Program-made: the position numbers and the translations under genes
Notes under the pieces: model-generated
Database searches by the model: none
Seen by the model: only the letters and a program-made list of their open reading frames with translations
What the model was told of the DNA's origin: nothing
In this document: piece by piece, positions 28,104-38,823 of the stretch
Position numbering within the stretch: position 1 is the first letter of the stretch
How the letters are laid out: the number at the start of each line of letters is the position of its first letter
NCBI RefSeq assembly: GCF_000455125.1
Contig: NZ_AUWR01000013.1
Coordinates: 1 to 52,112, forward strand
Direction of reading: 5' to 3'
From: Mycobacterium sp. UM_WGJ
GTDB lineage: Bacteria; Actinomycetota; Actinomycetes; Mycobacteriales; Mycobacteriaceae
DNA: 52,112 bases

Positions 28104-29153
28104 TCAGCGCCAACGCGCCCACACGTAGGGCACCAGCGACCGCAGGAACTCCAGATCCGGGCCGGGGCGGGCCTCGGCGAATGCCCGCTCGAAGTACTCC
28201 CGGGCCGCCAGCAGAATGCCCTCGGCGTACTGGCGGGTGAACGCGATGCTGCCGTAGTCGTCCATCAGAGTTCGCACCCGTCGCACCAGCGCGGCCGAGC
28301 GCTGTGACCGACTGCGGTGCAGATAGTCCGCGAGCAGGTCCCGATCGGGCCTCCGCGCCACGGTCAACAGATGGATCAGCGGCAGCGTCCGCTTCCCTTC
28401 GTAGAGATCGCCCAAGATCTCCTTGCCGTAGATCCGTTCGTCGCCGGCCAGGTTCAGCAGGTCGTCGCGGATCTGAAACGCGGCGCCGAAATGAAACCCG
28501 AACCGCACCAGCGGCCCCAGCTCGGCGGTGCCACGCGATCCCACGATCGCCCCCACCCGCAGCGGGTGGATGGTGGTGTACCAGCAGGTCTTGTGCAGGA
28601 TCAGATTCAGATAGTCCTCGGGCCGCAGATCATCGACATTGTCGGCCTGCCAGCCCACTTCGATCGCCTGCCCCTCCAGTGTCCGCAGCGCCATGGTGTC
28701 GAACTCAGCCCACACCAGTTCGGCCAGATCACGGTCAAGCTGCCGGGTTGCTCGCCGCAGTACCTGCCCGGCGACCAATGCCAGTGCATCACCGGTGTTG
28801 ATCGCCGTCGCCATGCCGTATATGGCGCCCAAAGTCGGCCTGCCCCGGCGCATTTCACTGCCATCGGCGACGTCGTCGTGGACCAGGAAGGCGTTGTGCA
28901 GCAACTCGATCGCGACGGCGACACCGAGTAACGCGTCGGTATCCGCGCCGAAAGCCCGGCCGGCGGACAGGCATAGGGCGGGCCGCAGCGCCTTGCCCGG
29001 CCGCTGGGGGTATGCCCGCAGCGGTGCATACAGCCACTTGGCGGGCTCACCGTCGGGCAGGGCGTCGAGCATGGCGCGGCGGACAATTCTGGCGACTTCA
29101 CCCAAGCGCTCATCGACCCCGGCCACCGATCCGCGGTCGGCGATGTCGGTCAC
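28104..29153 (-). CDS. trans-isoprenyl diphosphate synthase (polyprenyl synthetase family)
   Basis: A 349-residue prenyl-elongating enzyme predicted to condense isopentenyl diphosphate with allylic diphosphates. The first Asp-rich motif is D93-D94-V-A-D97 (HDDVADGSEMRRGRPT). The second is RDDLLNLAGD (D230-D231 with Asn234), as in some GGPP synthases. The substrate-binding GKRxRP motif is changed to GKALRP (residues 53-58), an Ala at a usually basic position. Ala88 five residues before the first motif argues against a short-chain FPP synthase, but product length is not decided by this. GTG at 29153 overlaps the stop of the upstream helical/beta protein gene by 4 bp (GTGA), so the two are coupled. 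This gene belongs to the divergent six-gene locus. Confidence 0.9.
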   Translation of the reverse strand: MTDIADRGSVAGVDERLGEVARIVRRAMLDALPDGEPAKWLYAPLRAYPQRPGKALRPALCLSAGRAFGADTDALLGVAVAIELLHNAFLVHDDVADGSEMRRGRPTLGAIYGMATAINTGDALALVAGQVLRRATRQLDRDLAELVWAEFDTMALRTLEGQAIEVGWQADNVDDLRPEDYLNLILHKTCWYTTIHPLRVGAIVGSRGTAELGPLVRFGFHFGAAFQIRDDLLNLAGDERIYGKEILGDLYEGKRTLPLIHLLTVARRPDRDLLADYLHRSRSQRSAALVRRVRTLMDDYGSIAFTRQYAEGILLAAREYFERAFAEARPGPDLEFLRSLVPYVWARWR

Positions 29154-29815
29154 GACTCTTGCGCCGCGACGGTGAGCACCACGGGCAACCACAGAGCCGG
29201 GCACCCGATCGCCAGCAGGGTGCCGCGGTAGGTACCGGGGCAGACGTCGGGGCCCACGTCGACGGTGATCTGCACGCCCCGACTGGACCGTCGCGGCATC
29301 GGCACCACGGCGGGGTCGATTCGCACCGCGCCGGCGTCGATCGCGCGGCCACCGTGACCGAGCAACTCACCGCAACGCAACCGGACCGCCACGCGGTCCT
29401 CGGACTCCCGGTTGTGCAGCCACACCTCGCCGGTGGCCGAACCCGGCCCGGTAACGGACAGCGTCAATGCGTCCTTGGATGCTGATGCATCGAGTTCCAG
29501 CGCCACGGACCCGTCCGCGCCGGGTGGCCGGACCGGCTGCGACCGAAGCAGGAACTGCCCGGCCGCCGACCACCAGGCCCGGGTCAGCTGTTCCCACTGC
29601 GGCAGCCCGGTCGGCTCGGCCCCATTGCCGTGTTCGGCAGAGCCGCGGTCCGGCGAGATCTCGGCCGCTTGGGCGAATCGATCGATGATTCGGCGAGCCG
29701 CCCGGAATCCTTCAGCCTGGATGGCACTGAGGGCGCGCGCATTGGCCGCGGGATCGAAAATTGACGCCCACGGCAAATCATCGATAGTGCCGTCACCGAA
29801 CGTTTTGTCAGCCAC
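29150..29815 (-). CDS. uncharacterised helical-plus-beta protein A of the isoprenoid locus
   Basis: A 221-residue protein with no recognised family. Residues 1-95 are helical; residues about 105-215 look like a beta sandwich and end with PGTYRGTLLAIGCPALWLPV and VLTV. The same two-part design and a GTYRG near the C-terminus occur in the 167-residue protein at 31375-31878, so the two are probably paralogues. There is no signal peptide. The GTG at 29815 has a strong AAGGAGGG Shine-Dalgarno 5 nt upstream; longer readings run into the divergent gene. It overlaps the prenyl synthase start by 4 bp. Confidence 0.72.
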   Translation of the reverse strand: MADKTFGDGTIDDLPWASIFDPAANARALSAIQAEGFRAARRIIDRFAQAAEISPDRGSAEHGNGAEPTGLPQWEQLTRAWWSAAGQFLLRSQPVRPPGADGSVALELDASASKDALTLSVTGPGSATGEVWLHNRESEDRVAVRLRCGELLGHGGRAIDAGAVRIDPAVVPMPRRSSRGVQITVDVGPDVCPGTYRGTLLAIGCPALWLPVVLTVAAQES

Positions 29816-29932
29816 CGATTCCCTCCTTAAGGAAATCAGCCTTACTCTGCTAAAAAATACGCTTTGCCAAGCTTGCCGGTAAACGACCCGAACGCCGTAT
29901 ACTACCTGCTTAATCGGGAGATCGGAGGCCCA
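29816..29932. promoter_or_regulatory. divergent promoter region of the isoprenoid/cyclase locus
   Basis: A 117-bp region, clearly more AT-rich than its surroundings, between the two arms of the locus. On the plus strand TTGCCG (29873-29878) and TATACT (29898-29903) form a possible promoter with a 19-bp spacer. The palindrome TCCTTAAGGA covers the Shine-Dalgarno of the minus-strand gene. No repeat that clearly marks an operator was found. Confidence 0.45.
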
Positions 29933-31378
29933 ATGGTGGCGACCGATATGGCAACTGCTGCTCAATCTCTGCTGGCGCTTTACGGCGCTCTCGATCAAGC
30001 GGTCATCAACACCGGAGACCCGGAAATCGAAGCCACTGTCGAGCGTTATCTTCCGGGCAGCACCGGAGCTAATGCCGGGTGGTACGACGAATTGCTCGGC
30101 TTCCTGGGCCAGTCGCACGATTTCGACCCCGAGCGGCCCGAATCACCGGCGGTGCCCGATTTGAGCCAGGCATTGACCGTCTTGCAGAACCAGGCGACAA
30201 CGCCGGCCCGGTCTCAGCCGATGACCGACGCCGGCCCCTTCGCCGCCGCCGCCGCCGCGCCGCAGCCCGCGCAGCTGACGTCGGTTGAGTTGTCCCGCAT
30301 GGTTTATGCGATCGGTGCGTTGAGTCACCTGCCGTCTTACTACCCGCCGGGTGAGTGGGACGCGGCCTTCACCCAGACTCTCGCCTTGGCCGGAGCCGGC
30401 GACGGAGCCGAACTGCTCGAGATGCTGCGCAACGAGTTCGGCGGCCGCGACGACTGGACGCAGGTGGTGTTGTCGGGTTCGTTGAACGCCGACGTCGCCG
30501 TAGTCCCGCTGTGCAACGCCAAACCCAAGTGGGTGCGCGGGCGGCTGTGCGTGGTGCTGACCACGGAATTCAGCAGCACGAAGGTGTCGCTGAACGACCT
30601 GAAAGACGTCATCGACCCGCTGAACTGGGCGCGCTGCCTGCCGTTCTTCTGCGCGATGGACGCCATGCCGACCCGCCCCGACGGCTGGAGCCGGGTGCTC
30701 GAACACTTCAGCACCACCTGCGGGATCGCCGGCATGCCGCAGATGCGGACGCCGCTCAAGTACTGGAAGGGGCCCGCGGTCGGCGCCCCGGTCCCCAAAC
30801 CCACGGCCTGGGTCGACTACACGCTCGACGACGACCCGGCGCCCGGGGAGCACGGCGACGGCGCCATGGTGATCGACGAAGGCTTCATCCGGATGACGTC
30901 GACAGTCGACGATCCGACGCTGCACGGTGTGCAGGTGCGCACCAGGAAAGTCGTGGGCTTCCGCAACCTGGGCTGGTTTCCCACCGCCCTGTTCGCCTGC
31001 GTGCTGGGTTACGGCGACCAGGGTGTCGAGATGTTGCTCGGCGGCGTGGCCAAGCGGGCGCAGGAGGGCCCGGCGGGTTGGACCCCGTGGCAACCGTCCA
31101 CACCGACCGCCGGCCAGCAGGGTGGCCCAACGGCGCCGGCGCCCCCGGCCGAGCCGGACCCGACGCAGCGGGCGATCACGGTGGCCATCGAGATGCTCGA
31201 CGAATGCATCGACGAGATGTCGCAGCGCAGCGCGGCGTTGGCCGCCAAATACGCGAGCGGCGTACCTCCGGTCGAGGAGTCGATCGCGTTCGCCGCCGAT
31301 CTGACCGCCCGGCTGGTGACCGACCCGTGGCGCTACCTGCAGCGGATGCGCACTCCACCTCAGGGCGGTGGCGCATGA
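29933..31378 (+). CDS. uncharacterised 481-aa protein of the isoprenoid/cyclase locus
   Basis: I do not recognise a family. The protein has an N-terminal helical part (about 1-85), a Gln/Ala/Pro-rich linker (about 85-120), a globular middle (about 120-370) with LSRMVYAIGALSHLPSYYPP, WARCLPFFCAMDAMP and VDYTLDDDPAPGEHG, a Pro/Gly/Thr linker (about 385-410), and a final helical domain. No signal peptide or membrane segment. The ATG at 29933 follows GGAGG by 4 nt; GTG 29936 is equally possible; a TTG at 29864 is less likely. The stop overlaps the next ATG by 4 bp. It is the first gene of the four-gene plus-strand arm. Confidence 0.75.
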   Translation: MVATDMATAAQSLLALYGALDQAVINTGDPEIEATVERYLPGSTGANAGWYDELLGFLGQSHDFDPERPESPAVPDLSQALTVLQNQATTPARSQPMTDAGPFAAAAAAPQPAQLTSVELSRMVYAIGALSHLPSYYPPGEWDAAFTQTLALAGAGDGAELLEMLRNEFGGRDDWTQVVLSGSLNADVAVVPLCNAKPKWVRGRLCVVLTTEFSSTKVSLNDLKDVIDPLNWARCLPFFCAMDAMPTRPDGWSRVLEHFSTTCGIAGMPQMRTPLKYWKGPAVGAPVPKPTAWVDYTLDDDPAPGEHGDGAMVIDEGFIRMTSTVDDPTLHGVQVRTRKVVGFRNLGWFPTALFACVLGYGDQGVEMLLGGVAKRAQEGPAGWTPWQPSTPTAGQQGGPTAPAPPAEPDPTQRAITVAIEMLDECIDEMSQRSAALAAKYASGVPPVEESIAFAADLTARLVTDPWRYLQRMRTPPQGGGA

Positions 31379-31878
31379 AAGACATCACCGAGGGCATTCA
31401 CCAGTACGCGCAGCGGTCGCGACAGCTGGTCGACCAGGCCGGAGCCATCGTGCGCGACGCGGACCAGCGGATCGGCGAGGGCACGTTCGGTTCAGCACAG
31501 TGGGCGCAGTCGGTCCGCCAACTGGTCAATCTGGTTGCCACCGCGGGTTACGAGATGTCCGGCGCCGTGCTGGCGCAGTGCGGCGCGCAGTGCTCCGACG
31601 TCGAGCTCTCCGAATTTCTCGAGGCGCCGCCGGGTCCCGGATACGAGCGGGTGCTGTCGGTCGCCGCACCCTTCGTCGCCGAGGGAACCTCGTACGCGCT
31701 CCCGCCGCAGGCACTGGTGTTGGTACCGGGTGTGCTACGGCCCTATGCCACCCGATTCCGGGTGGGGGTGCGCGGGCCGACTTACGTCAGCGGCACCTAT
31801 CGCGGCCGGATTCGGTTGTCCTGTCTGCCGCCCGCCACCGCACCGGCCCAGATAATGGACGTCATCGTCGACCTATGA
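31375..31878 (+). CDS. uncharacterised helical-plus-beta protein B of the isoprenoid locus
   Basis: A 167-residue protein with an N-terminal helical region (HQYAQRSRQLVDQAGAIVRD) and a C-terminal beta domain ending in SGTYRGRIRLSCLPP and a final strand (DVIVDL). Helix-then-beta order and the GTYRG turn match the 221-residue protein encoded on the other arm. Cysteines near residues 69 and 73 (QCGAQCSD) have no known role. It overlaps its upstream and downstream neighbours by 4 bp each, so its dosage is tied to the cyclase. Confidence 0.72.
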   Translation: MKDITEGIHQYAQRSRQLVDQAGAIVRDADQRIGEGTFGSAQWAQSVRQLVNLVATAGYEMSGAVLAQCGAQCSDVELSEFLEAPPGPGYERVLSVAAPFVAEGTSYALPPQALVLVPGVLRPYATRFRVGVRGPTYVSGTYRGRIRLSCLPPATAPAQIMDVIVDL

Positions 31879-34800
31879 GCGTCAGCGAGGAGCCCGCCGA
31901 GATCGACGAACTGCTGGATCACGCGATTCAAGCGGCGAACAGCGGCGACCGCGCCACCGCCAGCGCACTCGCCGAGCAGGTGCTCACCGTCGACATCGGC
32001 AACCAGGACGCCGAAGACCTGCTCTGCGCACCACTCGCGGGCTCCGGTGAACTACGCAGGCTGACGATACTTTTCGCTGATGTGGTCAACTCGACAGCAT
32101 TGTCGACCCGAATCGAGCCGGAGATCTATCGGACGGTGATCGGCCGCTACCGCCAGCAGGTCGACGAGATCGTGAACCGCTATGAAGGCCACGTCTTCTC
32201 CACCAAGGGCGACGGGCTGCTCGCCGTGTTCGGCCACCCCAGCGCCCACGAGAACGACGTGCGGCGAGCGGTACAGGCCGGCCTCGACATCACCCGCGAA
32301 GTGGACCGCCTCAGCGATCGGGTGCGAGCGCGGTTCGGTTTCGACATCGCAGTCCGGGTGGGCGTGCATCGCGGCATGGTGTATCTCGATGTGGCACAGG
32401 ACGACGTGTACGGACTGGGCGCCAACCTGGCCTCTCGCGTCTCAGGCCTGGCCCCGCCCGGCGGTGTCGTGGTGTCGGCGGCCGTTGCACCGTTGGTGGC
32501 CGGCCACTTCGAGCTCGAGGCCCAACCGGCTCAACCGGTCAAGGGCATCGACGAGCCGGTCGAGCACTATCGCGTCGTCAAGGAACACGTCGGCCGCTCT
32601 CGGGTTCCGCTGGGCCGGCTGGTCGGCCGCGACCTCGAGCTCACGCACCTGCGAGACGCCTGGAATCACGCCCGGCACGGTGTGTTGAGCGTTCCGGGGA
32701 TCTGCTTCAGTGGCGAGGCGGGCATGGGCAAGAGCCGATTGGCCACCGCCGCAGCAGAACTGGCCGAACAGTCCGGCAGGCCGGTGCTCGCCCTGATCGG
32801 ATCGCCGTTTCACGCCGACGCCGGGCTCCACCCCATTCGCACCCTGCTGGAACAGCGGGCCGGGATCGAGCGGACGACGGCACAATCCGACCGGCTGCGA
32901 CTTCTCGAAGACGAGGTCACGGCGCGCGGCTTGGATCCGGTCACGATGGTGCCGTTGTTGGCTGCCGCATTGGAGATTCCGGCCGAAGGTGGCTATCAGC
33001 CCACCCGGGCCGAGGGCGCCAAGCTCTACGGGCAGGTCATCGAGGCCGTCGTCGGCTACCTGCTCGCCTGCGCCGGTGCTGGGCCGGCGGTGCTGTTGGC
33101 CGAAGATCTGCAGTGGTTCGACCCATCGACACGCGATGTGGTCGCGTCGTTGCTCGCGACCGCCCCGGGAACGCTGCTCATGGTGTTGACCGCCCGCGAG
33201 CTGAACTCGCTGCCGGATCTGCCCCAGCTCAAGGTGTTCGAGCTCGCACCGTTGACGGCGACACAGACCGATGAGTTGATCGCAGTGCTGAATCCTGCCC
33301 TGCCCGGCGCCGAACGCGCCGAGGTTCAGCGGCGCTGCGACGGTGTGCCGCTCTATATCGAAGAGGTGGTCGCCAAGTTGCACGAGCAGCCGCAGGACGC
33401 GGCGGGGTGGGCGCGGGTTCCCGACGCCCTCTACGAGCCGCTGTTCTCTCGGCTTCGCGCCAGCAGCAACACGATTCAGGTGGTCGAAGCCGCCTCCACC
33501 GTCGGCAGGGAATTCGATCGCGCCATGCTCGGCGCAGTCCTCGACCTCGCAGCCGGTGATCTCGAGGATGCTGTTGCAGCCCTGGTTGCGGCGCGGGTCT
33601 TCGAGCCGGTGACCAAGGACCGCTGGCGTTTCCGGCATGAGCTGCTCCGCGAGGTCGCCTACGAGTTGCCTCCGCCCAGCGTTCGGCGCCAGCTGCATGG
33701 TCGAGTCGCCGACACCCTGGTCAGCGACTCAGACAATCCGGATTGGCATCTGGTCGCCCTGCACTACCGGGTGGCGGAGCGGTTCGAGGCCGCCGCCGAC
33801 GCCCACCAGAAAGCTGCGTACGACGCCCGGCAGCGCGGTGCCCTCGACGAGGCCCGCGCCTGCCTCAGCCAGGCCATCGAACAACTCCGGCTAGCGGCGG
33901 AGGGACCGTCTCGCGATCGCCGCGAAGTGCTGTATCGGCTTCGGCGTGGCTTCCTCACCTCGGCGGTGGAAGGTACTGCCAGCCCGAAGGCGGCCAAGGA
34001 CTTCGAATGCTGCCTGAAGCTCGGGGCCACCGATCCCCGACAGGACTGCTTCATGTCGACGATGACTGCGTTGTGGGCCTACTACCTGCCCCGTGGCGAC
34101 CTGCGCCGCGCCCTGCGCGTGGCCGAGTACGCCAGATCGAAGCGACCCGATGAGCGGAAGTGGTTCGGTCCGACAAACGCCGCGGCGTTCGGCATGGTCG
34201 CCTGGTTTCTTGGTGACTTCGGCAAGGCCCGAGCGCTGTTGGAGCAGGCCGTCGCGGAGATGAAGGAAGCGCCCCTGCCCGATTTCGAATCTCTGTGGTT
34301 CATTCCCAGCGATGCGCTCGCTTCCATGCACATGCACTTGGCGATGGCACGATTCGTCCAAGGCGATCTCACCGGCGCCGACGAGCAGTTATCCGAAACC
34401 GTCAGGCGGGCAGAAGATATCGGCTTCCCGCAAGGCCCATTCAGCCACTGCTACCAACGATTCACCGAGATCTACATGTGCATGGAGGCCGGCCTACTCG
34501 AACGCGCCGGCGAGGTGGTGACGGTACTGGCTGCGCAGGCCGAGCGGCACGGATTCGAGTACTGGACGATGATCGCGGCCAATCAGCGCGGCGCCGTCGA
34601 CGCGTTGTCGGCGCTGGCGGGCGAGCACACCGACCCAGCCCGGTTGGCACCCCACATCGCGACGATGACCGAAATCGGTTCTGCCTTGCGGGCGGCCGAG
34701 GTCAAGCTGTTCTCTACCTACTACGACGGGGTACTGGCCCGGTTGCTGATTGCCGTCGGCGACACCGCGCAGGCCCACGAATGCCTCAACGGCGCGCTGG

Positions 34801-35078
34801 CGTTGGCCGATGAGACCGCGGTGAACTTCTACCGCGCCGAATTGCTGCGGATACGGTCACACACCCGCGGTGACGCCGCGGCACGCGACCGCGATCTGCG
34901 CTGCGCCATCGAGACGGCACGCCGGCAGGCGGCGCACATCTACGAACTGCGCGCGGCGATGGATCTTGTCGACCTGCAGGGGGATTCCGCACGTGACCTG
35001 TTGGCCGGCGCCATGACGCACTTCCTCGCCGATTCCGACTGGACGGAGCTGGATCGAGCCAGAACGCTGCTCAGGTGA
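31875..35078 (+). CDS. class III nucleotide cyclase fused to a AAA/STAND ATPase and helical repeats
   Basis: A 1067-residue multidomain signalling protein. A class III cyclase domain (about 55-220) has metal Asp in LFADVVNSTAL (about 69) and KGDGLLAVFG (about 112), a Lys beside the latter, and the Asn/Arg pair in GLGANLASRVSG, so it appears catalytic. An ATPase domain follows with Walker A GEAGMGKSRL (about 280) and Walker B-like VLLAEDLQWFD (about 405). From about residue 600 the protein is TPR-like helical repeats. The architecture recalls Rv1358/Rv0386-type proteins but no LuxR domain is present. The ATG at 31875 overlaps the preceding stop by 4 bp; its own stop overlaps the FAD gene start by 4 bp. 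Confidence 0.93.
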   Translation: MSVSEEPAEIDELLDHAIQAANSGDRATASALAEQVLTVDIGNQDAEDLLCAPLAGSGELRRLTILFADVVNSTALSTRIEPEIYRTVIGRYRQQVDEIVNRYEGHVFSTKGDGLLAVFGHPSAHENDVRRAVQAGLDITREVDRLSDRVRARFGFDIAVRVGVHRGMVYLDVAQDDVYGLGANLASRVSGLAPPGGVVVSAAVAPLVAGHFELEAQPAQPVKGIDEPVEHYRVVKEHVGRSRVPLGRLVGRDLELTHLRDAWNHARHGVLSVPGICFSGEAGMGKSRLATAAAELAEQSGRPVLALIGSPFHADAGLHPIRTLLEQRAGIERTTAQSDRLRLLEDEVTARGLDPVTMVPLLAAALEIPAEGGYQPTRAEGAKLYGQVIEAVVGYLLACAGAGPAVLLAEDLQWFDPSTRDVVASLLATAPGTLLMVLTARELNSLPDLPQLKVFELAPLTATQTDELIAVLNPALPGAERAEVQRRCDGVPLYIEEVVAKLHEQPQDAAGWARVPDALYEPLFSRLRASSNTIQVVEAASTVGREFDRAMLGAVLDLAAGDLEDAVAALVAARVFEPVTKDRWRFRHELLREVAYELPPPSVRRQLHGRVADTLVSDSDNPDWHLVALHYRVAERFEAAADAHQKAAYDARQRGALDEARACLSQAIEQLRLAAEGPSRDRREVLYRLRRGFLTSAVEGTASPKAAKDFECCLKLGATDPRQDCFMSTMTALWAYYLPRGDLRRALRVAEYARSKRPDERKWFGPTNAAAFGMVAWFLGDFGKARALLEQAVAEMKEAPLPDFESLWFIPSDALASMHMHLAMARFVQGDLTGADEQLSETVRRAEDIGFPQGPFSHCYQRFTEIYMCMEAGLLERAGEVVTVLAAQAERHGFEYWTMIAANQRGAVDALSALAGEHTDPARLAPHIATMTEIGSALRAAEVKLFSTYYDGVLARLLIAVGDTAQAHECLNGALALADETAVNFYRAELLRIRSHTRGDAAARDRDLRCAIETARRQAAHIYELRAAMDLVDLQGDSARDLLAGAMTHFLADSDWTELDRARTLLR

Positions 35079-37153
35079 GTCCGCCGGGTGGCAAGGTAGT
35101 CATCCTGGGCGGAGGCATGGCCGCGCTGAGTGCCGCCTGGCGGCTTAGCGAACCCGGTTGGCGAGACCGCTTCGACTCCATCACCGTCTATCAACGCGGT
35201 TGGCGCCTCGGCGGCAAGGGAGCTTCCAGCCGTGGCCGGCACGGACGCATCGAAGAGCACGGCCTGCATATCTGGCTGGGCTCTTATCAGAACGCCTTCG
35301 CCCTGCTTCGCGAGTGCTACACCGAACTCGACCGGGCCACAACTGATCCGGCAGCACCGATCAGCACTTGGGACCAAGCGCTGATTCCGGCGGACAACGT
35401 GGGGCTGGCCGACCGGCTCGGCAGCGAGTGGTTGATCTGGCTGGGCACCTTCACCCGAACCGACGGGTCACCCGGCGCTCCCGGCGGCACCGGCCGGGAG
35501 ATGACGGTGGTGGAGTTCACCGTCCGGGCACTGCGTCTCGTTCGCGATTTCGCCGAATCGCTGCGCGGCACCACCGCGCCCGGAATCACGTTGTCCGTCC
35601 ACCCGGAGCCGCCGCCCACGCAGCGATGGATCGAGGCGGTGACCGATGCGGCCGTGGCAATACTGCTCGCCCTGGGCGATCCGCAGGCCGCCGGCGCCGG
35701 CCTGCCCGGGAAGGTCGACGGCGCGGTGGCGGCGGTGCGCGCCGCCCTGGACTATGAGCGACGGCCCGACCACCGGCGGTCCTGGCTGCTGCTCTCGCTG
35801 ATGACCGCGGTGATCCGCGGAATCCTCGCCGACCACCTGGTCACCGACCCGCGCGGAATGCGGGCGATCAACGACGAAGATTTCAACGACTGGATCCTGC
35901 GCCACGGCGCGCACCCCGATGTCACCGAATTCGCTTTGGTACGTGGCATGTACGACCTGGTGTTCGGGTACCGCGACGGCGATCCCGACCAGCCCGCGTT
36001 CGCCGCGGGGCTGGCGGTGTTTCTGACCGGCCAGGTGCTGTTCGGCTACCACGGGTCGATCTTCTGGAAGATGACCGCCGGAATGGGCGACGTCGTCATC
36101 GCTCCGCTGTACCAGGCGTTGCGGCGTCGCGGTGTCACCTTCGAGTTCTTCCACCGCCTCGATGCCCTCCACCTGGACGCCGCGCGACGAGCAGTCGACA
36201 CCATCACGCTGGGGCGGCAACTGCACCTGGCCGACGGCCTGACAAGCTACGAGCCGTTGACCACGGTGCGGGGGCTGCCGGTGTTCCCCAGCACGCCGCT
36301 GACCAACCAATTGGCGGCACCTGACCAGGTCCCCCCCGATGGTTGGCATGCGCTGGAAACGCACTGGTCGGACTACCCCGACGCCGAGTCACGGGTGCTG
36401 CGTAGGGGTGTCGACTTCGATCACGCCGTCCTGGCCGTATCCCTGGGCATGCTGCCGGTGGTCGCCACCGAGCTGATCGAAGACCGGCCCGAGTGGCGAC
36501 GGATGACCACGGAGGTCCGCACCGTCGCCACCCAGGCCTTCCAGATCTGGTTGCGCCCGGATGAACCGGCACTGGGCTGGCAGGAGCCCGGCGTGACGCT
36601 CAGTGCCTACGTTCCCCCGTTCGAGACGTGGGCCTCCATGCCGCAGACGCTGTGGGCCGAAGACTGGCCCGAGCATGATCGCCCCGGCACAGTGGCCTAC
36701 TTCTGCGGCACCCTGGATGCGGCGTGGCCCACCGATGAGACCGGTCCGGGCTACCTGCACCGACATCGGCAGCAGGTTCGGGGACAAGTCGCCCACCACC
36801 TCGACCGTCACCTACACCGGTTCCTTCCCGGCGCCGTCAGCGAAGCAGGCTTCGACTGGCGGTTGCTCAGCGGGTCCGACGGCGAAACCGACTGCGCAGC
36901 ATTGGAAACCCAACACATCAGCGTGAATGTCGATCCCTCGGACCGGTATGTGCAGTCGATCCCGGGAACCGACCGGTACCGGTTGCGCGCCGACGAAAGC
37001 GGCTACGACAACCTGGTTCTGGCCGGCGACTGGACCGACTCCGGCATGAACGCCGGGTGCATCGAAGCGGCCGTCATGTCTGGACTGCAGGCCGCGAACG
37101 TCCTGGCGGGGCGACACCGATACCACCGCATTCGGGGCCTATACCTGCCCTGA
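35075..37153 (+). CDS. FAD-dependent desaturase/amine-oxidase-like protein
   Basis: A 692-residue flavoprotein of the phytoene-desaturase/amine-oxidase superfamily. The dinucleotide fold is VVILGGGMAALSAAWRL (about 8-24), followed by WRLGGKGASSRG and EHGLHIWLGSYQNAF, as in plant-type carotene desaturases. The FAD is closed by the C-terminal GDWTDSGMNAGCIEAAVMSG. It is about 150-200 residues longer than usual desaturases, with an inserted helical part at about 115-290. With the nearby prenyl synthase, an isoprenoid substrate is a reasonable inference. GTG at 35075 overlaps the cyclase stop. It ends 2 bp from the convergent lipoprotein gene. Confidence 0.86.
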   Translation: MSPPGGKVVILGGGMAALSAAWRLSEPGWRDRFDSITVYQRGWRLGGKGASSRGRHGRIEEHGLHIWLGSYQNAFALLRECYTELDRATTDPAAPISTWDQALIPADNVGLADRLGSEWLIWLGTFTRTDGSPGAPGGTGREMTVVEFTVRALRLVRDFAESLRGTTAPGITLSVHPEPPPTQRWIEAVTDAAVAILLALGDPQAAGAGLPGKVDGAVAAVRAALDYERRPDHRRSWLLLSLMTAVIRGILADHLVTDPRGMRAINDEDFNDWILRHGAHPDVTEFALVRGMYDLVFGYRDGDPDQPAFAAGLAVFLTGQVLFGYHGSIFWKMTAGMGDVVIAPLYQALRRRGVTFEFFHRLDALHLDAARRAVDTITLGRQLHLADGLTSYEPLTTVRGLPVFPSTPLTNQLAAPDQVPPDGWHALETHWSDYPDAESRVLRRGVDFDHAVLAVSLGMLPVVATELIEDRPEWRRMTTEVRTVATQAFQIWLRPDEPALGWQEPGVTLSAYVPPFETWASMPQTLWAEDWPEHDRPGTVAYFCGTLDAAWPTDETGPGYLHRHRQQVRGQVAHHLDRHLHRFLPGAVSEAGFDWRLLSGSDGETDCAALETQHISVNVDPSDRYVQSIPGTDRYRLRADESGYDNLVLAGDWTDSGMNAGCIEAAVMSGLQAANVLAGRHRYHRIRGLYLP

Positions 37154-38097: not shown

Positions 38098-38823
38098 GTG
38101 TTGCTACGGAAGATCGCACGTCCACTGCTCGCGGCAGCGTTTATCGGTCAAGGCGTGGACGCGTTGCGCCGGCCGCAGCAAGCCGGGCAGGCGGCGCGTC
38201 CAGCGTTCGACGGCCTCAAACAGTTACCCGACGAGGTAGCGGCCAAGGTGCCTTCCGATGTCGAAGCATTCGCCAAGGCGAACGCGCTGGCACAGATCGG
38301 TGGCGGCGTCCTGCTGGCCAGCGGCAGGCTGCCACGGGTTGCGGCTGCGGTGCTGGCATGCACGGTCATTCCAGGGAGCGCCGGGGCGCACATGTTCTGG
38401 ACGGAATCCGACCCCGAACGCAAGAACGAACAACGCAAAGCGTTCTTGACCGACGTCAGCCTGATCGGCGGATTGTTGATCGCGGCCGCCGACACCGAAG
38501 GAAAGCCTTCGCTGGGCTGGCGGGCCCGTCGCGCCTATCGTCGCGCAACCGACGCCTTGCCCACTTCCTCCGGCGATGCCGTGCTGGAGACCGTCGGTGA
38601 GAAGGTGAGCACGAGCCTGCTCGCCGGCGTGGAGCATGGCCGCGAGCTGGCCGAGGCGGTCGGGGAAAAGGCCGGACCGTTACTGGAGTCGGCCGGCGAA
38701 CGGGGAACACAGCTCGCGGAAGTCGCCGCGGACCGGGGAACCGAGCTGGCGCACGCGGCCCGCGACGGTGCGATCACGCTCGCCGACAGCGCCCGCCGCC
38801 GCATGCGCCGGCACCTCCCCTAG
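38098..38823 (+). CDS. DoxX family membrane protein
   Basis: A 241-residue protein. Residues 1-140 form a four-helix DoxX membrane domain (LLRKIARPLLAAAFIGQGVD, QIGGGVLLASGRLPRVAAAV, AHMFW, TDVSLIGGLLIAAAD). The C-terminal 100 residues are a separate charged helical tail with repeated GE/GT motifs (VGEKVSTSL, VGEKAGPLLESAGERGTQLA, ADRGTELAHAARDG), roughly an 11-residue pattern typical of amphipathic helices. DoxX proteins in mycobacteria are linked to redox and thiol stress with SodA and SseA; those genes are not here. The GTG has no clear Shine-Dalgarno. Confidence 0.86.
   Translation: MLLRKIARPLLAAAFIGQGVDALRRPQQAGQAARPAFDGLKQLPDEVAAKVPSDVEAFAKANALAQIGGGVLLASGRLPRVAAAVLACTVIPGSAGAHMFWTESDPERKNEQRKAFLTDVSLIGGLLIAAADTEGKPSLGWRARRAYRRATDALPTSSGDAVLETVGEKVSTSLLAGVEHGRELAEAVGEKAGPLLESAGERGTQLAEVAADRGTELAHAARDGAITLADSARRRMRRHLP

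What the first reader, a model, noticed from the sequence alone, without database searches (positions are those of the whole stretch)
28104..37153. Divergent six-gene isoprenoid / cyclic-nucleotide locus with complete translational coupling
Seen: two arms diverge from one 117-bp AT-rich region. Minus arm: helical/beta protein A then prenyl synthase, 4-bp overlap. Plus arm: 481-aa orphan, helical/beta protein B, cyclase-ATPase-TPR protein, FAD desaturase-like enzyme, each with a 4-bp overlap. Known: M. tuberculosis lacks this block between thyX and dfrA. Inference: the prenyl synthase makes a chain that the FAD enzyme modifies, and the cyclase/ATPase senses or controls the process; coupling of unknown proteins to both suggests a complex with fixed stoichiometry. 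No phytoene synthase or terpene cyclase is present, so this is not a standard carotenoid cluster.
Basis: partly seen in the sequence, partly recalled or inferred. Interest (0 to 1): 0.78.

Follow-up and report, generated by a model that had tools for sequence, protein, structure and literature searches.

The report
Conserved isoprenoid-cyclase six-gene module
Some mycobacteria carry a block of six genes that is inherited as a unit and joins an enzyme that builds isoprenoid chains, an enzyme that may modify them, a sensor that may make a signal molecule and three proteins of unknown kind; what it makes is still unknown.

Summary
In detail: six ORFs in two arms diverge from a 117-bp region, with 4-bp overlaps at all four junctions. 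In 201 Mycobacteriaceae genomes the FAD enzyme and protein A occur in the same 5; orphan and B in those 5 plus one genome with a 3.6-kb fragment. 54 six-gene loci (one a duplicate) were collected at about nine or ten sites; A-prenyl overlaps by 4 bp in 53 of 54 and cyc-FAD in 50 of 50 with that order.

New here: A and B share a C-terminal domain (P 7.5e-6, best of six comparisons). A is fused to the prenyl synthase in one other actinomycete; an extra orphan and B are fused in one genome. In other phyla the FAD enzyme often lies near an ADC-family protein (8 of 14) and a STAND-type signalling protein (11 of 14) whose output domain varies.

Best reading: a sensor-controlled assembly that makes and modifies an isoprenoid. 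Genetic linkage is shown; chemistry, complex and signal are inferred. The orphan's fold stays unknown. Tests against four known systems failed. Listings of nine paper searches showed no description.

The parts
28104..29153 (-). polyprenyl diphosphate synthase, 349 aa from GTG at 29153
   Evidence: PF00348 E 4.6e-57, over cut-off; first Asp motif DDxxD in 54 of 54 and second motif DDxLN in 54 of 54; best PDB matches are GGPP and polyprenyl synthases
29150..29815 (-). protein A, 221 aa: conserved amphipathic helix and a beta-sandwich-like C-terminal domain; partner of the prenyl synthase
   Evidence: no Pfam match at E up to 1; with E up to 10, 31 of 37 relatives match GH123_N PF22680, best E 6.4e-5, the window's own only 0.24 and below cut-off; fused to the prenyl synthase in L091; hydrophobic moment 0.79 at residues 35-52, no control
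29816..29932 (.). 117-bp divergent region with promoter-like elements
   Evidence: 50.4% GC; most common 7-mer of 55 divergent spacers is TAGCATA/TATGCTA, in 35 of 55, no shuffled control; the window reads TATACTA; CRP-like sites not in excess of shuffles
29933..31378 (+). orphan protein, 481 aa, fast evolving, most conserved in the centre (residues 186-384)
   Evidence: no Pfam family shared by more than one of 52 members, none for the central region, no PDB relative; remote homologue in L091, P 4.5e-10
31375..31878 (+). protein B, 167 aa: helical-looking N-terminus and a C-terminal domain related to that of A
   Evidence: C-terminal domains of B and A: P 7.5e-6, probability 84%; whole profiles P 7.6e-4, probability 25%; an ORF at this place in 59 of 59 loci with both neighbours, chosen mechanically; profile finds it in 6 of 201 genomes
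31875..35078 (+). class III nucleotidyl cyclase - AAA_16 (STAND-type) ATPase - TPR-like protein, 1067 aa
   Evidence: PF00211 E 1.3e-18 and PF13191 E 5.2e-15, both over cut-off, TPR models below cut-off; both metal Asp, NxxxR and Walker A residues in 54 of 54
35075..37153 (+). FAD-dependent amine-oxidase/desaturase-like enzyme, 692 aa
   Evidence: PF01593 E 3.7e-15, over cut-off; best NCBIfam model HpnE 73.7 bits, cut-off 283.05

Best explanation
A sensor-controlled isoprenoid-making and -modifying assembly carried as one six-gene module. Shown: the six genes are co-inherited in a nearly fixed neighbourhood with conserved overlaps; A pairs with the prenyl synthase (overlap, one fusion), orphan with B (overlap, one fusion, one duplicated pair) and cyclase with FAD enzyme (overlap). 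Inferred: (1) the synthase makes a prenyl diphosphate; (2) A holds the synthase at a membrane or lipid surface by its amphipathic helix; (3) orphan and B scaffold or carry the hydrophobic chain; (4) the FAD enzyme desaturates, isomerises or dehydrogenates it; (5) the STAND-type protein senses substrate, product or a stress ligand and reports by a cyclic nucleotide to a receptor outside the locus.
For: Same 5 of 201 genomes for FAD and A, those 5 plus one for orphan and B; one of the 5 is the window's own genome. 54 six-gene loci, distances of the six proteins correlate at r 0.65-0.90, about nine or ten sites. Overlaps. Fusions and duplication: L091, L054, L041. Catalytic motifs kept. Elsewhere the FAD enzyme lies near an ADC-family protein in 8 of 14 loci and a STAND-type protein in 11 of 14.
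Against: No substrate, product or complex was measured. L025 and L044 have a broken prenyl frame and L059 no cyclase. No prenyl synthase found in 8 of 14 non-mycobacterial FAD loci. No cyclic-nucleotide receptor among the six proteins and no excess of CRP-like sites. The cyclase has Ser where Ma1120 has a Lys that I recall as base-specifying, so its product is uncertain. The second prenyl motif ends in Asn. The orphan's relation to SRPBCC lipid carriers was tested and not found. Correlated distances could partly reflect species phylogeny; no unlinked control gene was run. No signal-peptide or membrane predictor was run; a hydrophobic 19-residue window above 1.8 occurs in the FAD enzyme of 44 of 54 loci and the cyclase of 12 of 54, so a membrane anchor is possible.
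Confidence: 0.42

Rival explanations
1. A constitutive specialised-lipid biosynthetic cluster: the cyclase is an ordinary regulator, and A, B and orphan are enzymes or carriers of unrecognised fold, without a scaffold or sensor complex.
For: Prenyl synthase and desaturase-like enzyme together. An oleate hydratase working with an ADC-family enzyme on unsaturated fatty acids is a described precedent (PMC9241672, start of abstract seen in the listing; that the hydratase uses FAD is recalled).
Against: A is fused to the synthase in L091 and matches only a beta-sandwich model weakly; orphan and B diverge more than the enzymes, mean pairwise distance 0.70 and 0.74 against 0.23 for prenyl, 0.34 for FAD and 0.47 for cyc; cyc-FAD overlap in 50 of 50.
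Confidence: 0.25
2. A sensor-triggered stress or defence module: the STAND-type cyclase is the detector, and the FAD and prenyl enzymes make a membrane-active or signalling lipid on triggering.
For: STAND-type ATPase with a cyclase; PADLOC Pycsar-cyclase models match the cyclase domain, best E 6.1e-13; sporadic, orphan in 6 of 201 genomes; fast orphan and B; two unrelated versions at the thyX site.
Against: The other five proteins have no PADLOC match below E 0.05, the best being A at 0.051; no known effector among the six. Flanking genes look like housekeeping ones (thyX, dapA and RNase J are my naming, recalled; DoxX).
Confidence: 0.15
3. A, B and orphan coat an intracellular lipid or polyisoprenoid granule on which the enzymes dock.
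For: Amphipathic helix in A; weak likeness of orphan C-terminus and B N-terminus, P 0.0013; an ADC-family protein and a FAD-dependent oxidoreductase are listed in a cyanobacterial lipid-droplet proteome (PMC12923008, passages seen), whose relation to the present families was not tested.
Against: No phasin family among the Pfam matches of A, B or orphan relatives; nothing measured.
Confidence: 0.12
4. Chance adjacency of unrelated genes.
For: The six proteins belong to different families.
Against: Same genomes in the 201-genome sample and 54 six-gene loci at several sites.
Confidence: 0.01

Closest known systems
Family 2 encapsulin systems with polyprenyl transferase cargo (NF041169; PMC8346489, passages seen)
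   Same: best-scoring NCBIfam model for the prenyl synthase, 191.7 bits; cyclic-nucleotide-binding domains occur in some of those shells
   Different: cut-off is 450; no shell gene among the proteins scanned at the locus; the one SrpI-like gene found in the genome is on another contig (only PF19307 was searched)
TOMM system kinase/cyclase fusion (TIGR03903)
   Same: residues 57-1033 of the cyclase protein align, 287.7 bits
   Different: cut-off is 705.75; no kinase domain
Hopanoid HpnE and carotenoid desaturase pathways
   Same: FAD enzyme is distantly alike: HpnE 73.7 bits, phytoene desaturase 33.4 bits
   Different: cut-offs 283.05 and 569.4; no squalene or phytoene synthase among the six
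Pycsar defence
   Same: cyclase domain matches PycC models
   Different: cyclase is joined to a STAND-type ATPase; no effector among the six
FAD-enzyme loci of Azospirillum, Catenovulum, Rufibacter, Qingshengfaniella, Granulosicoccus and a Bacteroidetes MAG (no name found)
   Same: same FAD enzyme family, 33-39% identical to the window's; a STAND-type protein near FAD in all of these except Catenovulum
   Different: ADC-family protein near FAD in all of these except Rufibacter; no orphan found; prenyl synthase only in Granulosicoccus

Membership tests
Polyprenyl diphosphate synthase | PF00348 over cut-off and first Asp-rich motif DDxxD | tested here: met
   E 4.6e-57; motif in 54 of 54
Polyprenyl diphosphate synthase | second Asp-rich motif DDxxD | tested here: inconclusive
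   DDxLN in 54 of 54, last Asp is Asn; whether that matters was not tested
Class III nucleotidyl cyclase | PF00211 over cut-off, two metal Asp, NxxxR | tested here: met
cAMP-specific adenylyl cyclase | Lys at the base-specifying position (role recalled) | tested here: not met
   Ser in the window and in 41 of 54 loci at the position of Ma1120's Lys; a Lys lies two residues later in 53 of 54
STAND-type ATPase | AAA_16 domain with Walker A and B | tested here: met
   PF13191 E 5.2e-15; motifs kept in 54 of 54
STAND-type ATPase | C-terminal repeat (TPR) sensor region | tested here: inconclusive
   TPR models match only below cut-off
FAD amine-oxidase/desaturase superfamily | PF01593 over cut-off, glycine-rich FAD-binding start | tested here: met
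HpnE hydroxysqualene dehydroxylase | TIGR03467 over cut-off | tested here: not met
   73.7 against 283.05 bits
Carotenoid or hopanoid cluster | phytoene or squalene synthase beside the desaturase | tested here: not met
   none among the six and two downstream proteins; further flanks were not scanned
Family 2 encapsulin cargo | NF041169 over cut-off and adjacent shell gene | tested here: not met
   191.7 against 450 bits; PF19307 match on contig C22, window is C13
TOMM kinase/cyclase | TIGR03903 over cut-off with kinase domain | tested here: not met
   287.7 against 705.75 bits; no Pkinase
Pycsar | cyclase with a dedicated effector | tested here: not met
   only the cyclase protein matches
SRPBCC lipid carrier (orphan centre) | profile relation to Polyketide_cyc2 | tested here: not met
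   P 0.23; shuffled columns 0.084 at best of 20; positive control 1.9e-27
SRPBCC lipid carrier (orphan centre) | helix-grip fold | not testable with these tools
   structure prediction switched off

The most novel reading that the evidence does not exclude
An undescribed class of modular system: a STAND-type sensor with an exchangeable output domain (cyclase, GGDEF or histidine kinase) wedded to one FAD enzyme family across phyla, which in mycobacteria has joined a scaffolded isoprenoid-synthesis unit (A with prenyl synthase, orphan with B) and works as one lipid-surface machine that makes and senses an unknown isoprenoid.
Probability: 0.3. Interest if true: 0.85.

Novelty: new variant of a known kind. 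Interest (0 to 1): 0.6.

Why it matters
If the reading holds, dozens of mycobacterial species have an unknown isoprenoid product and a direct link between isoprenoid enzymes and nucleotide signalling. Mycobacteria have many class III cyclases whose inputs are unknown (recalled); this one has an obvious candidate partner, so its input can be tested. Three uncharacterised protein families gain a first functional context.

Tried and rejected
Orphan as an SRPBCC lipid carrier: the strand and helix pattern looked right by eye, but the profile test against 19 Polyketide_cyc2 stretches of the same genome gave P 0.23 (reversed 0.39, best of 20 column shuffles 0.084, positive control 1.9e-27). Orphan as a divergent ADC-family protein: profile against profile P 0.7; two single-sequence comparisons gave 0.096 and 0.01, the last a short stretch of the L072 protein; not accepted. 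cAMP-CRP loop at the divergent promoter: best-site mismatches in 55 spacers resemble shuffles. Encapsulin system. A fused to the prenyl synthase in L074 and L075: I first took it so from ORF lengths, but the prenyl frame holds no A and A lies in another, overlapping frame. L072's 262-aa gene as an A relative: P 0.0043 only; left open. L074's 761-aa gene as an orphan relative: P 0.44. Structure prediction and fold search were planned; the predictor is off, so no fold search was made.

Limits of the counts. The genome scan used two short peptide patterns and FAD as bait, so its 63 loci are a lower bound and test the other five genes, not FAD. Of 68 loci L010-L077, 53 hold all six genes; 15 do not: L012, L023, L029, L039, L057, L077 cut by contig ends, L025 and L044 with a broken prenyl frame, L059 without cyclase, L069 and L072-L076 distant. 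With the window this makes 54; L011 and L070 have identical FAD genes, so one is a duplicate. Starts and B ORFs were chosen by rule. Site groups come from single linkage of 3-kb flanks. The tree was shown without support values. Of 11 plasmid records with a FAD relative, 4 were opened. Searches for prenyl synthase near distant FAD genes used tblastn with the window's protein and could miss remote ones.
Full report
WHAT IS THERE. The window is one contig of an unnamed 4.47-Mb genome. For the FAD enzyme its nearest relatives are Mycolicibacter strains (87-88% in L015, L016, L020, L042). The genome has two further polyprenyl synthase genes elsewhere.

THE SIX PROTEINS. Over Pfam cut-off: PF00348 for the prenyl synthase, PF00211 and PF13191 for the cyclase protein, PF01593 (and PF13450) for the FAD enzyme; A and B have no match and the orphan only one below cut-off (VG15, E 0.081) at E up to 1, and TPR matches are below cut-off. 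Scanned relative by relative at E up to 10, 31 of 37 A proteins match the GH123 N-terminal beta-sandwich model (best E 6.4e-5; the window's own 0.24), while 52 orphans and 41 B proteins match no family more than once. Orphan searches of the PDB gave nothing convincing. Of six domain pairs compared, A and B C-termini are related (P 7.5e-6, probability 84%), orphan C-terminus and B N-terminus weakly (P 0.0013), the other four not; whole A and B profiles give P 7.6e-4, probability 25%.

CATALYTIC MOTIFS in 54 loci. Prenyl synthase: DDxxD and DDxLN in all, so the second motif ends in Asn. Cyclase: both metal Asp, NxxxR and the Walker residues in all; the position of Ma1120's Lys is Ser in 41 of 54, with a Lys two residues later in 53 of 54 (alignment; the role of that Lys is recalled). 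FAD enzyme: glycine-rich start in all, C-terminal FAD motif in all but one copy cut by its contig end.

CO-OCCURRENCE. In 201 Mycobacteriaceae genomes, window's own included: orphan 6, FAD 5, A 5, B 6. The five are the same; the sixth, G032, holds orphan, B and part of the cyclase on a 3.6-kb contig, and its FAD and A were not found elsewhere. In 396 genomes across the phylum: orphan 3, FAD 6. The block is sporadic but tightly linked.

NEIGHBOURHOOD. A scan of the species-genome collection with FAD gave 63 loci. With five and the window, 54 of 69 hold all six genes. Pairwise distances of the six proteins correlate at r 0.65-0.90; an unlinked control gene was not run. Flanks fall into 10 groups on the left and 9 on the right. 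Eight loci besides the window lie at the thyX site; one of them, L065 from M. shimoidei, falls elsewhere in the cluster tree, which suggests replacement or a second insertion at one place. In L014, L041, L048 and L056 FAD precedes the cyclase; they form one clade.

OVERLAPS, FUSIONS, DUPLICATION. Four-bp overlap: A-prenyl 53 of 54, orphan-B 40 of 54, B-cyc 37 of 50, cyc-FAD 50 of 50; with FAD first, FAD-cyc 1 of 4 and B-FAD 0 of 4. L091, another actinomycete, has orphan relative (P 4.5e-10), cyclase, FAD, and one 548-aa protein joining an A relative (P 6.1e-13) to a prenyl synthase. In L074 a separate A relative (tblastn E 1e-4) lies before the prenyl gene. In L069 and L075 an ORF in the same place is assigned to A from its position and from a GxYxG motif in a forced alignment, which is not an independent test. 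In L054 an extra orphan and B share one 869-aa ORF; in L057 the corresponding pieces are in different frames, so this fusion rests on one genome. L041 has two orphan-B pairs, the extra B recognised by reading.

OUTSIDE MYCOBACTERIA. I examined 14 FAD loci: L067, L069, L072-L076 and L087-L093. A STAND-type relative of the cyclase protein was seen in 11 of 14: with cyclase and ATPase regions in eight (L067, L072, L073, L074, L075, L087, L089, L091), only its C-terminal part in L076, where the contig ends, with kinase, GAF and GGDEF in L093, and with kinase, GAF, PAS and histidine kinase in L088. It was not seen in L069, whose contig begins just before FAD, nor in L090 and L092. An ADC-family protein was seen in 8 of 14 (L072, L073, L074, L076, L087, L088, L090, L092), fused to FAD in L087 and L092; L073 and L092 score below Pfam's cut-off, L074 is a tblastn match without a clean ORF, and L088 and L090 rest on their record's annotation. 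A prenyl synthase was seen in 6 of 14 (L067, L069, L072, L074, L075, L091) and the orphan in 2 of 14 (L067, L091). In L087 a Crp/Fnr gene follows the cyclase. Two more class-level searches found only their centre genomes (1 of 24; 1 of 189).

MECHANISM. Shown: linkage and the pairings A-prenyl, orphan-B, cyclase-FAD. Inferred: an intracellular assembly in which A holds the prenyl synthase at a lipid surface (moment 0.79, no control), orphan and B carry or scaffold the chain, the FAD enzyme alters it, and the STAND-type protein senses the process or its trigger and emits a cyclic nucleotide. No receptor is among the six proteins, and CRP-like sites are not in excess. No signal or membrane predictor was run; the highest 19-residue hydropathy in the window's proteins is 2.14 (A, C-terminus), and the FAD enzyme has a window above 1.8 in 44 of 54 loci, so one part may sit in a membrane. 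Confidence 0.42 for the whole chain, above 0.9 that the six genes are one unit.

LITERATURE. Nine paper searches ran. In the titles and abstract starts they listed I saw no description of this locus; one search listed 12 of 142 papers, and the library holds open-licence papers only. PMC8346489 and PMC12923008 were seen in passages, PMC9241672 only as the start of its abstract.

VERDICT. The chemical interpretation remains open. Tests against four known systems (encapsulin cargo, TOMM kinase/cyclase, hopanoid or carotenoid cluster, Pycsar) failed, while the three enzymes are members of known enzyme families. I call it a new variant of a known kind, with a categorically new system not excluded.

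Noticed in passing
L041:3581-15303: Two orphan-B pairs; the first lies between the prenyl gene and A, so the usual A-prenyl pair is split.
   Followed up: partly
L054:2140-4749: An extra orphan and B in one 869-aa ORF; the related pieces in L057 are in different frames.
   Followed up: partly
L059:9992-13301: A mycobacterial locus with the other five genes but no cyclase; by reading, a saccharopine-dehydrogenase-like gene follows FAD on the other strand. L072 has a gene with that domain beside its cluster.
   Followed up: no
L065 (M. shimoidei), thyX site: A distantly related version of the block at the same site as the window's.
   Followed up: partly
L096 (G000:C22:43550-44278): SrpI-like encapsulin gene elsewhere in the window's genome.
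   Followed up: no
L093:11996-16939 and L088:3964-9723: STAND-type proteins beside the FAD enzyme with GGDEF or histidine-kinase output in place of a cyclase.
   Followed up: partly
L025 and L044, prenyl gene: The prenyl synthase match is split over two frames in these two loci; whether real or a sequencing error is unknown.
   Followed up: no
window 38098-38823: DoxX-family protein whose C-terminal part weakly matches a phasin model (E 0.048, below cut-off).
   Followed up: no
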